From the NCBI RefSeq assembly GCF_037975245.1, contig NC_092568.1:31588501-31652500 (forward strand): a stretch of DNA of 64,000 nt, in the 5' to 3' direction. Under the pieces are notes generated by a model, which had not been told where the DNA came from, ran no database searches, and was given only the letters and a program-made list of their open reading frames with translations. Origin of the DNA: Apostichopus japonicus. Its lineage: Eukaryota > Echinodermata > Holothuroidea > Aspidochirotida > Stichopodidae. Positions 7,701-10,700 of this stretch are shown one piece after another. Positions within the stretch are counted from its first letter, which is position 1, and every line of letters starts with the position of its first letter. A program made the position numbers and the translations under genes.

Positions 7701-10700
7701 GTACACCTGATACCCGATGATGCACGATAAAACCTGTTTACATTTCCTAATAAAAATCTTACAGTACAGTGCTGGATATACCTATCAGTTTACATATTAA
7801 ATGTGTGATTTATACCAGTGGCGTGCGCAAGGAAGAGGGGGGGGGGGGGGTGGCGAGAGGACATGTGTACGCAGTGATATGTACGTTTGCTAAAGAAAAA
7901 AGGCAATGTGGAAGTAGGGTTGAGAGTGGGGGAGTAACAAACAGGTCTGACAAGATAGGGTGAGGAGGGACTAAAATCCTGGGACCCTGGATCAATAATG
8001 GGTCCTAGAAACCATTCAGGAGGCTCGGGAAAATATGAGGTAAAAAACAGTGTACTCTCATTTTCTTGGCATACCTTAATGAGGAAAATGAAGAGTGCAA
8101 ACAAGGGGAGGGGGTCAGACCTGGATTTCGATGCCTCTGGTATAACAAGTCGACTCCCTGTGGCACATAATTTTGTTCTTCGCTATTCTATGGAGTGCTC
8201 ATCTTAATAATGAAGGTAAAGTCAAGTTTGGCTAATTGTATTCTCTGTTCGGTATACAGATAGATGACGGGTTGCATCTAGAGTATCTGTCGGAGATGCG
8301 CCAGGTCAGTGTCCTCTTTATAAACTTATTGTTTATTAACGGAGAAGACATTGACGATGTTGGGAGCTTACAGGCTGCATTCCAGACCATTTACAGAGAT
8401 CTCCGCAAATTTGAAGGTTAGTCTTTGTGCATCTACGTTAGCTTATAACACTAGGTCATAGATAGACTTTAACATCACTGAAGGCAGTTAATGCTAGAAT
8501 CGTTAGGATTATCCCCTTTGGCTAGCAAAATTGGGTTAAATTCTGTAATGATCTCAATTAATGAATATCTAGGAATCGTTCAAAATTTCACGTTTGTTGA
8601 TACTTTTCAAACCTCCAGACCAACCCAGAGAGTTGATTGGGATCTAAACTGAAAAAGAAAATGACAAGGATGTAAACTAGTCTAAGTGTGGCAACGTGAG
8701 AGTTTAAAGTTCGATATATCGTCCACGTATATACATATATTTACTCTTCTAGCTTTAATTCGGGCAGTATTATAGCTATAGTCCTCTGTTATCCATGTAC
8801 CATATTAACAAATCTGTCTCCATTTATATTTGGTTTTCGCCTATACGGTAACGAAATAAATTGTTGAAGGTGTATAGCCTACGTGTGTTTCCGACTGCAA
8901 TATAACTACGGTAATCATGACCTCAATACTTGATTTTCATATATAAGTAAGAAAAATCTATAATACTTACTTCGTGTTTCCTATTTGTAGGTTGTCTCAA
9001 CAAAATCTTCATGTTCGACAAGGTAAGCGATAATTCACGAATCAGTGTACCGACTTAACATAGAAATGAAAACCTTCGCTGTGCGGCGGGCTTTTTCCAA
9101 AAACTATTTATCGTAGCCCTCAAGTCATGAATGAGTACATTTAGGACATTGTGTTCACATCACTACAAACCTTATGCACGAATGTATTAAAATAGAAAGT
9201 AGAAGCACCAAATGTGGGACTGATAAGTTCAGTGGTGGAGTCAAATTTATGGGCATGGTGTCTTGGAGTGAGGGGGGGGGGGGGACAGGGTGGTGGCAAG
9301 TACATGCAGTGTTATTTATTTGAGCGGGTATGTTTATTTCATTCAGGTAAGGGTTCTGCTAGGAATTGGGAAAGTTACACTTCTCCTCCGCTCCCCCTGG
9401 GGTTTCTTTTACATGTACAAAAGAACATGTAATTTACAATAGAGGCTTCCGTATATTTTGAAGTCAGTATAATGTGTAAAATACATTTACACACATTTGG
9501 TGAGACTGGGACTCAAGACGACTTCATTTGTCGTTTCATTATTCGAGGAATCTGTGTTTAGCTACCAGAAAACGTCAAATGCCATCATGAGTGTTGGTGA
9601 AATATTCTTCTTTTGAAGGGATGTACCTTTCTGTGCATATTTGGAATTTGTTGTTTAATTATGTATAACTACCAGAAAACGTAATATACCGTCACGAGTG
9701 TTGGTGAAATATTCTTCTTTTGAAGGGCTGTACCTGCCTGTACATAGTTGGCATTTGTTGTTTAATTATGTATAACTACCAGAAAACGTCAAATACCGTC
9801 ATGAGTGTTGGTGAAATATTCTTCTTTTGAAGGGCTGTACCTGCCTGTACATAGTTGGCATTTGTTGTTTAATTATGTATAACTACCAGAAAACGTCAAA
9901 TACCGTTATGAGTGTTGGTAAAATATTATTCTTTTGAAGGGATGTACCTTCCTGTTCATATTTGGAATTTGTTGTTTAATTATTCGATGAATGTGTGTAT
10001 AACTACCAGAAAACGTCAAATACCGTCATGAGTGTTGGTGAAATATTCTTCCTTTGAAGGGTTGTACCTTCCTGTTCATATTTGGAATTTGTTGTTTAAT
10101 TATTCGATGAATGTGTGTATAACTACCAGAAAACGTCAAATACCGTCATGAGTGTTGGTGAAATATTCTTCCTTTGAAGGGTTGTACCTTCCTGTTCATA
10201 TTTGGAATTTGTTGTTTAATTATTCGATGAATGTGTGTATAACTACCAGAAAACGTCAAATACCGTCATGAGTGTTGGTGAAATATTCTTCCTTTGAAGG
10301 GTTGTACCTTCCTGTGTATGTTTGGCGTACCCGGATACAAACACGAGGACGATTGTGCCAGAGCATTGAAGTGTGCCTATCAAATCAGTGAACGACTGAA
10401 AAATGGGCCAAATGTTTCGTAAGTAAATCATTGACGTAAATGTACGATTAGAGAGTATAAATAAATTGGTATAAATATTAGAAGCAGAAACATGAAAATG
10501 AAAATAGTACATTATAGCGTTTCTAATCTCGAAATGAACATTACTATTTGTATTGGTATTTGTATCAACTGTGTTTCATGTATTGCATTTGGTATATATA
10601 TGTAATTTTGTAGCTCCTTCTCAGTTCTAACGGCACTGACCGTATAAGCGAAGTCTTTTCTTTCTCGATAATAGCCTGACCTAGCTATATAGATATGAAA

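What the first reader, a model, noticed from the sequence alone, without database searches (positions are those of the whole stretch)
9562..10299. An array of decoy 3' splice sites made by tandem copying of the exon 10 boundary
Six extra copies of the acceptor and first ~27 nt of ADCY10 exon 10 stand before the real one. Each decoy keeps a pyrimidine tract and 'tttgaag' acceptor, but its frame reaches a stop (TGA) within the repeat. Use of a decoy would truncate the protein inside C2, giving a C1-only form or nonsense-mediated decay. The 107- and 120-bp unit classes show stepwise growth by unequal exchange.
Basis: partly seen in the sequence, partly recalled or inferred. Interest (0 to 1): 0.78.

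Follow-up and report, generated by a model that had tools for sequence, protein, structure and literature searches.

The report
Splice-boundary minisatellite ("mirage") in ADCY10
In a marine animal's ADCY10 gene, a small stretch holding the end of an intron and the first 26 letters of the next exon has been copied six extra times in a row; the copies are real, but the best reading is an unstable neutral repeat of a kind already known from amphioxus, not a device the gene has been shown to use.

Summary
Seven tandem units (94 nt of intron end plus 26 nt of exon start; a 13-nt deletion makes the 107-bp class) run from about 9524 to 10325 in an ADCY10 (soluble adenylyl cyclase) gene. Six decoy acceptors precede the real one at 10300. 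On a recalled splice-site matrix five decoys score like the real site and one lower. The nearest decoy and the real site share an identical 253-nt context. Each decoy frame stops: five at TGA, the first at TAA. The search of the whole genome found the unit at this place only; I infer the genome to be the HiFi assembly of Apostichopus japonicus. The structure matches "mirages", minisatellite-like tandem copies of intron/exon boundaries described in amphioxus; the two papers I saw say these do not disturb splicing. The acceptor core is not conserved above chance (P = 0.13) and the decoy exon pieces show no coding constraint. A two-copy boundary repeat turned up in a sugar-transporter gene of the same genome. 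Best reading: a neutral, recently grown mirage; the real site is probably favoured by its nearness to the 5' splice site, with some leaky truncated or NMD transcripts. Regulated decoy use is not excluded: I had no RNA data and no related genomes.

The parts
8991..9022 (+). Upstream ADCY10 exon, 32 nt, ...[11 protein letters not shown] (aligned to human residues around K334-K340), followed by donor GTAAGC at 9023
9023..10299 (+). Intron of 1277 nt that holds the array
9524..9644 (+). Unit 1 (121 nt, most divergent, has the 13-nt segment); decoy acceptor first exon base 9619; stop TAA 9682
9645..9751 (+). Unit 2 (107 nt); decoy acceptor 9726; stop TGA 9828
9752..9858 (+). Unit 3 (107 nt); decoy acceptor 9833; stop TGA 9935
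9859..9965 (+). Unit 4 (107 nt, interrupted pyrimidine tract); decoy acceptor 9940; stop TGA 9988
9966..10085 (+). Unit 5 (120 nt); decoy acceptor 10060; stop TGA 10108
10086..10205 (+). Unit 6 (120 nt, identical to unit 5); decoy acceptor 10180; stop TGA 10228
10206..10325 (+). Unit 7 (120 nt): authentic acceptor (exon from 10300); its 94-nt intron part is identical to units 5 and 6, its exon part differs at 3 of 26 positions
10300..10418 (+). Authentic exon, 119 nt, [39 protein letters not shown]..., donor GTAAGT at 10419
9597..10278 (+). Seven weak donor-like sites TTG|GTRAAA at 9597, 9704, 9811, 9918, 10038, 10158, 10278, each 22 nt before the next acceptor; with the decoys they outline possible 85- and 98-nt pseudoexons (inference)

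Best explanation
It is a 'mirage': a minisatellite whose unit happens to contain the end of an intron and the first 26 nt of the next exon of ADCY10. A founder segment of about 120 bp was duplicated in tandem; one unit lost 13 bp and spread to three copies; the three units nearest the exon were homogenised most recently, so that the real acceptor itself now lies in a copied unit (shown from the unit alignment). The copies are probably neutral. The spliceosome probably still joins the 32-nt upstream exon to 10300, because under exon definition the acceptor nearest the 5' splice site at 10419 gives a 119-nt exon, while decoys give exons of 239 to 800 nt (inferred). Occasional use of a decoy would end the protein inside C2 and put a stop 188 to 734 nt before the next exon junction, a substrate for nonsense-mediated decay (inferred).
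For: Array anatomy and unit alignment. Same anatomy as amphioxus BflGb6: 3' intron end plus 5' exon part, 150-160 bp units, 3 and 6 units in two haplotypes, 81-100% identity, homogenised units with an excluded edge (section 16 of PMC3087553 read); here 86-100% identity, units 5 = 6, and edge unit 1 most divergent. Acceptor core (9 columns) invariant with P = 0.13; wider cores P = 0.32-0.35; exon columns variable 7 of 26 against intron 14 of 81 (Fisher P = 0.39), so no sign of constraint. Decoy exon pieces read GCTCLYIV or GCTFLFIF against GCTFLCMF in the gene. Repeats are common here: in 200 kb sampled from the same chromosome, arrays of period 20 or more cover 4.66% and of period 80-300 cover 2.05%. 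Another boundary-spanning repeat, 40 bp x 2 over a donor, lies in a Sugar_tr gene of the same genome.
Against: No RNA data: normal splicing is assumed. With invariance in 7 of 7 units the acceptor core could still be selected; seven related units give little power. The proximity study (PMC9225289, abstract and section 9 seen) found an overall preference for the upstream 3' splice site, which exon definition reduces; so decoy use could be substantial. Five of six decoys score as high as the real site. Copy-number instability, a hallmark of mirages, could not be tested.
Confidence: 0.8

Rival explanations
1. The array is a regulated set of decoy acceptors that lowers or switches ADCY10 output by making truncated, NMD-prone transcripts, perhaps outside the testis.
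For: Five of six decoys score like the real site; the last decoy and the real site share 253 identical nt, -237 to +16; every decoy frame ends in a stop 188-734 nt before the next junction. ADCY10 mis-splicing to an upstream AG before an exon of the second cyclase domain is reported in bull testis (passages of PMC3582612; I could not show that it is the same intron).
Against: No conservation of acceptor core above chance; stops within 16-34 codons are what unselected sequence gives (recalled expectation of about one stop in 21 random codons); amphioxus mirages reported not to disturb splicing; sea urchin sperm are said to hold only the full-length enzyme (passage of PMC12867704).
Confidence: 0.08
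2. The array is an assembly error, or true only for one haplotype's copy number.
For: Three 3' units are identical or nearly so, the sort of repeat that short-read assemblies misplace; amphioxus arrays differ in copy number between haplotypes.
Against: The array is 802 bp. If the genome is the A. japonicus assembly of PMC10344927 (64x HiFi, mean read 14.7 kb, passages seen), single reads span it many times. Units 1-4 carry private differences, so they are not one unit repeated by mistake. That the species is right is inferred, not shown.
Confidence: 0.06
3. A step toward a new exon or intron: the pieces between a decoy acceptor and the next donor-like site are being recruited, as Ebner et al. 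propose for globin introns.
For: Each unit holds TTG|GTRAAA with a U1 duplex energy of -5.3 to -5.4 kcal/mol, like the weaker donors of this gene; it outlines 85- or 98-nt pseudoexons. The intron-gain model is in PMC3087553 section 16.
Against: 85 and 98 are not multiples of three and the frames stop; the donor-like sites are weaker than most of the 8 gene donors scored (-3.9 to -11.6) and lie only 22 nt before the next acceptor.
Confidence: 0.04

Closest known systems
'Mirage' tandem repeats of amphioxus globin genes BflGb6 and BflGb9 (PMC3087553, abstract, passages and section 16 seen)
   Same: Minisatellite-like tandem copies of an intron's 3' end and the next exon's 5' part (BflGb6); units with splice signals; homogenised units with a divergent edge; similar unit length (150-160 bp there, 107-120 bp here)
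   Different: Other gene and probably another phylum (genome inferred to be a sea cucumber); haplotype variation and RT-PCR were shown there, not here; here the homogenised units lie next to the authentic exon
Amphioxus Adh3 and troponin C mirages (known to me only through PMC3087553 and PMC3902484; the originals were not seen)
   Same: Tandem copies that duplicate splice sites; reported not to give aberrant mRNA; somatic length instability at Adh3
   Different: Adh3 units are given as 10-72 bp
Lancelet PGBD5 60-bp and 108-bp repeats over splice sites (PMC3902484, passages seen)
   Same: Unit length close to this one, copy number differs between two assemblies (2 or 7, 3 or 6)
   Different: Imperfect repeats at other exons of another gene; splice sites there were predicted, with little cDNA support
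Internal tandem repeats at exon-intron boundaries of human segmental duplications (PMC2812944, passages seen)
   Same: Tandem repeats at boundaries that can alter splicing
   Different: Those are in recent primate paralogs and were found as new introns in transcripts; no transcript evidence here

Membership tests
Mirage minisatellite | Tandem repeat spans an intron/exon boundary and includes part of the exon | tested here: met
   94 nt intron plus 26 nt exon per unit, 7 units
Mirage minisatellite | Copies carry splice signals | tested here: met
   TTTGAAG|GG in 7 of 7; PWM 5.83-5.9 in 6 of 7 and 3.4 in one
Mirage minisatellite | High identity with homogenised units and an excluded edge | tested here: met
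   pairwise differences 0/120 to 15/107; units 5 and 6 identical, unit 1 most divergent
Mirage minisatellite | Copy number varies between haplotypes or cells | not testable with these tools
   one assembly, no reads, no relatives held
Mirage minisatellite | Normal mRNA is still made | not testable with these tools
   no RNA data; only indirect: the authentic exon and its neighbours keep an open ADCY10 frame
Regulated alternative 3' splice site / poison exon | Junctions to the alternative sites in RNA | not testable with these tools
   no RNA data
Regulated alternative 3' splice site / poison exon | Alternative sites conserved above neutral surroundings | tested here: not met
   core P = 0.13, wider windows P = 0.32-0.35, low power with 7 related units
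Regulated alternative 3' splice site / poison exon | Kept in related species | not testable with these tools
   the genome has no relatives in the held set

The most novel reading that the evidence does not exclude
A natural ladder of seven near-equal 3' splice sites is used as a dose control for ADCY10: unit number sets the share of dead, NMD-prone transcripts, so that copy-number variation among individuals tunes sperm cAMP supply.
Probability: 0.07. Interest if true: 0.75.

Novelty: new member of a known kind. Interest (0 to 1): 0.36.

Why it matters
If the species is right, mirages are not confined to amphioxus: among the papers my searches listed (only the top 2, 15 and 15 rows seen, and most subscription papers are not held), those that use the word for splice-boundary repeats concern lancelets only. 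The array is also a ready natural experiment: the last decoy and the real site have the same 253-nt context (-237 to +16), so any difference in use must come from what lies further downstream or from distance to the 5' splice site. That makes the old question of how equal splice sites are chosen directly testable in a living animal. As it stands, though, it is most likely a neutral repeat.

Tried and rejected
Recursive splicing at the decoys: rejected, the acceptors read AG|GG, not AG|GT. RNA structure that might hide decoys: 10020-10420 folds no better than shuffles, z = -0.83. Peptide function of decoy exon pieces: no coding constraint seen. Mobile element: no other copy of the unit found in the genome or window. 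Array coverage as a base rate: one survey, opportunistic. ADCY10 boundaries: 1 of 24 spanned by an array (boundaries set by hand). P450: 0 of 20 exon loci, chosen by me from 96 listed matches and fetched with only 200 nt on each side. Sugar_tr: one boundary array among 10 matches (the same array seen in two loci); in two fetched gene regions 1 of 9 and 0 of 7 edge positions, picked by eye and partly not exact boundaries. This shows that such repeats recur in the genome, not that they are enriched; the rate is no higher than the 4.66% array coverage. Low-yield steps: Rfam gave three tRNA-like copies, Pfam of 8 open frames gave one weak LRRC8-like match. Paper searches on decoys and scanning gave nothing on this structure except PMC9225289.

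Full report
What is there. The window holds part of an ADCY10 gene on the + strand. The intron at 9023-10299 (1277 nt) follows a 32-nt exon at 8991-9022 and contains the reported array.

The array. Seven units begin at 9524, 9645, 9752, 9859, 9966, 10086 and 10206 and end with the 26th base of an exon start. Lengths are 121, 107, 107, 107, 120, 120, 120. The 107-bp units lack 13 nt that the leftmost and the three rightmost units have, so the deletion is derived. Pairwise differences range from 0 of 120 (units 5 and 6) to 15 of 107 (units 1 and 2). Unit 7 is the gene's own boundary: its intron part is identical to units 5 and 6 and only its exon part differs (3 of 26). So the authentic acceptor has itself been drawn into the exchange, while the exon beyond has not. 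Acceptors 10180 and 10300 are identical from -237 to +16; 10060 and 10300 from -117 to +16.

Splice signals. TTTGAAG|GG is invariant in 7 of 7. On a recalled human-like matrix the real site scores 5.83 and the decoys 5.9, 5.9, 5.9, 3.4, 5.83, 5.83; eleven other acceptors of the gene score 1.15 to 12.1. About 6.5% of 1892 AG sites in 1-35000 score as high as the real one, so it is middling. The -3 base is A, which is rare in other animals (recalled). A non-array AG at 9347 scores higher (7.66). The decoy frames stop after 21, 34, 34, 16, 16 and 16 codons, 188 to 734 nt before the exon's end. Each unit also holds a weak donor-like site 22 nt before the acceptor.

Selection. Columns: 107 without gaps, 21 variable; intron part 14 of 81, exon part 7 of 26 (Fisher P = 0.39). 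Invariance of the 9-column acceptor core has P = 0.13; windows from -9, -14 and -20 give P = 0.32-0.35. The longest invariant run (14 nt) lies elsewhere in the unit. Seven related units have little power, so weak constraint is not excluded.

Genome context. The window is part of a 671,581,487-bp genome of 35 contigs; 240 bp of the array match only here (4 matches). Size, contig number and the length of contig C23 (18,203,763) agree closely with the HiFi assembly of the sea cucumber Apostichopus japonicus (671.6 Mb, 34 scaffolds, chromosomes from 18.21 Mb; passages of PMC10344927). This is an inference; no name was given. In 20 stretches of 10 kb from the same chromosome, arrays of period 20 or more cover 4.66% of the sequence. 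Among 10 Sugar_tr matches, one exon has a 40-bp duplication over its donor: 15 nt of exon and 25 nt of intron, the second copy with GTAATT in place of GTGAGT. Twenty P450 exon loci show none, and 1 of 24 ADCY10 boundaries is spanned, the one under study.

Known kind. The closest description is the 'mirage' of amphioxus: in BflGb6, tandem copies of an intron's 3' end and the next exon's 5' part, 150-160 bp units, six and three units in two haplotypes, reported not to interfere with regular splicing (PMC3087553, section 16 read). Lancelet PGBD5 has 60- and 108-bp repeats over splice sites, and that paper says Adh and TnC mirages do not give aberrant mRNA (PMC3902484, passages). Every feature that I could test is met; haplotype variation and normal splicing could not be tested.

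How it most likely works. It most likely does nothing for the gene. Unequal exchange or slippage grows and homogenises the units; the splice site comes along because the founder segment crossed the boundary. Why splicing survives is inferred. The flanking introns are 1277 and 702 nt, so exon definition is likely; PMC9225289 (abstract and section 9) reports that sites closest across the exon are then favoured. The same section reports an overall preference for the upstream 3' splice site, reduced under exon definition, so some decoy use is to be expected. Such transcripts would end inside C2. [quoted passage not shown]

Verdict. A new member of a known kind, probably in a new phylum.

Noticed in passing
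window 9333-9353 (AG at 9345-9346): TTTATTTCATTCAG|GTAAGG: the best-scoring acceptor of the intron directly abuts a consensus donor, like a recursive splice site. Seven YAGGTRAG sites occur on the + strand of the window and none on the - strand; three of them are gene donors, so chance is quite possible.
   Followed up: partly
L027 1416-1494 (G000:C17:36726834-36726912, minus-strand gene): 40-bp x 2 tandem repeat across the donor of a Sugar_tr (SLC2A-like) exon: a second boundary-spanning repeat in this genome.
   Followed up: partly
L036 (reverse strand 184-9730): The same Sugar_tr gene region is rich in minisatellites: 12 x 39 bp ending just before an exon, 46 x 46 bp, and others.
   Followed up: no
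window 3638-3859: The residue aligned to human R176 is N (AVDDANRAE against AVDDVRLAQ) while K95 is kept (human numbering from a recalled sequence). PMC12867704 (passages) reports R176N in sea urchin ADCY10, which responds to pH and not bicarbonate.
   Followed up: partly
window 3313: The exon ending ...AAAATCG is followed by GCAAGT: a likely GC-AG intron in ADCY10.
   Followed up: no
window 35797-35868, 41196-41267, 45472-45543 (- strand): Three tRNA-model matches of similar score (61-63 bits); perhaps copies of a tRNA-derived element.
   Followed up: no
window 18010-18691: 28-bp x 24 minisatellite in a later ADCY10 intron.
   Followed up: no
window 57365-57811 (+): Weak match to the Pannexin_like region of LRRC8 (22.3 bits, below the cut-off of 25).
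   Followed up: no
window 56796-57187 and 62159-63079: Further tandem arrays, 186 bp x 2.1 and about 145 bp x 2-4.
   Followed up: no
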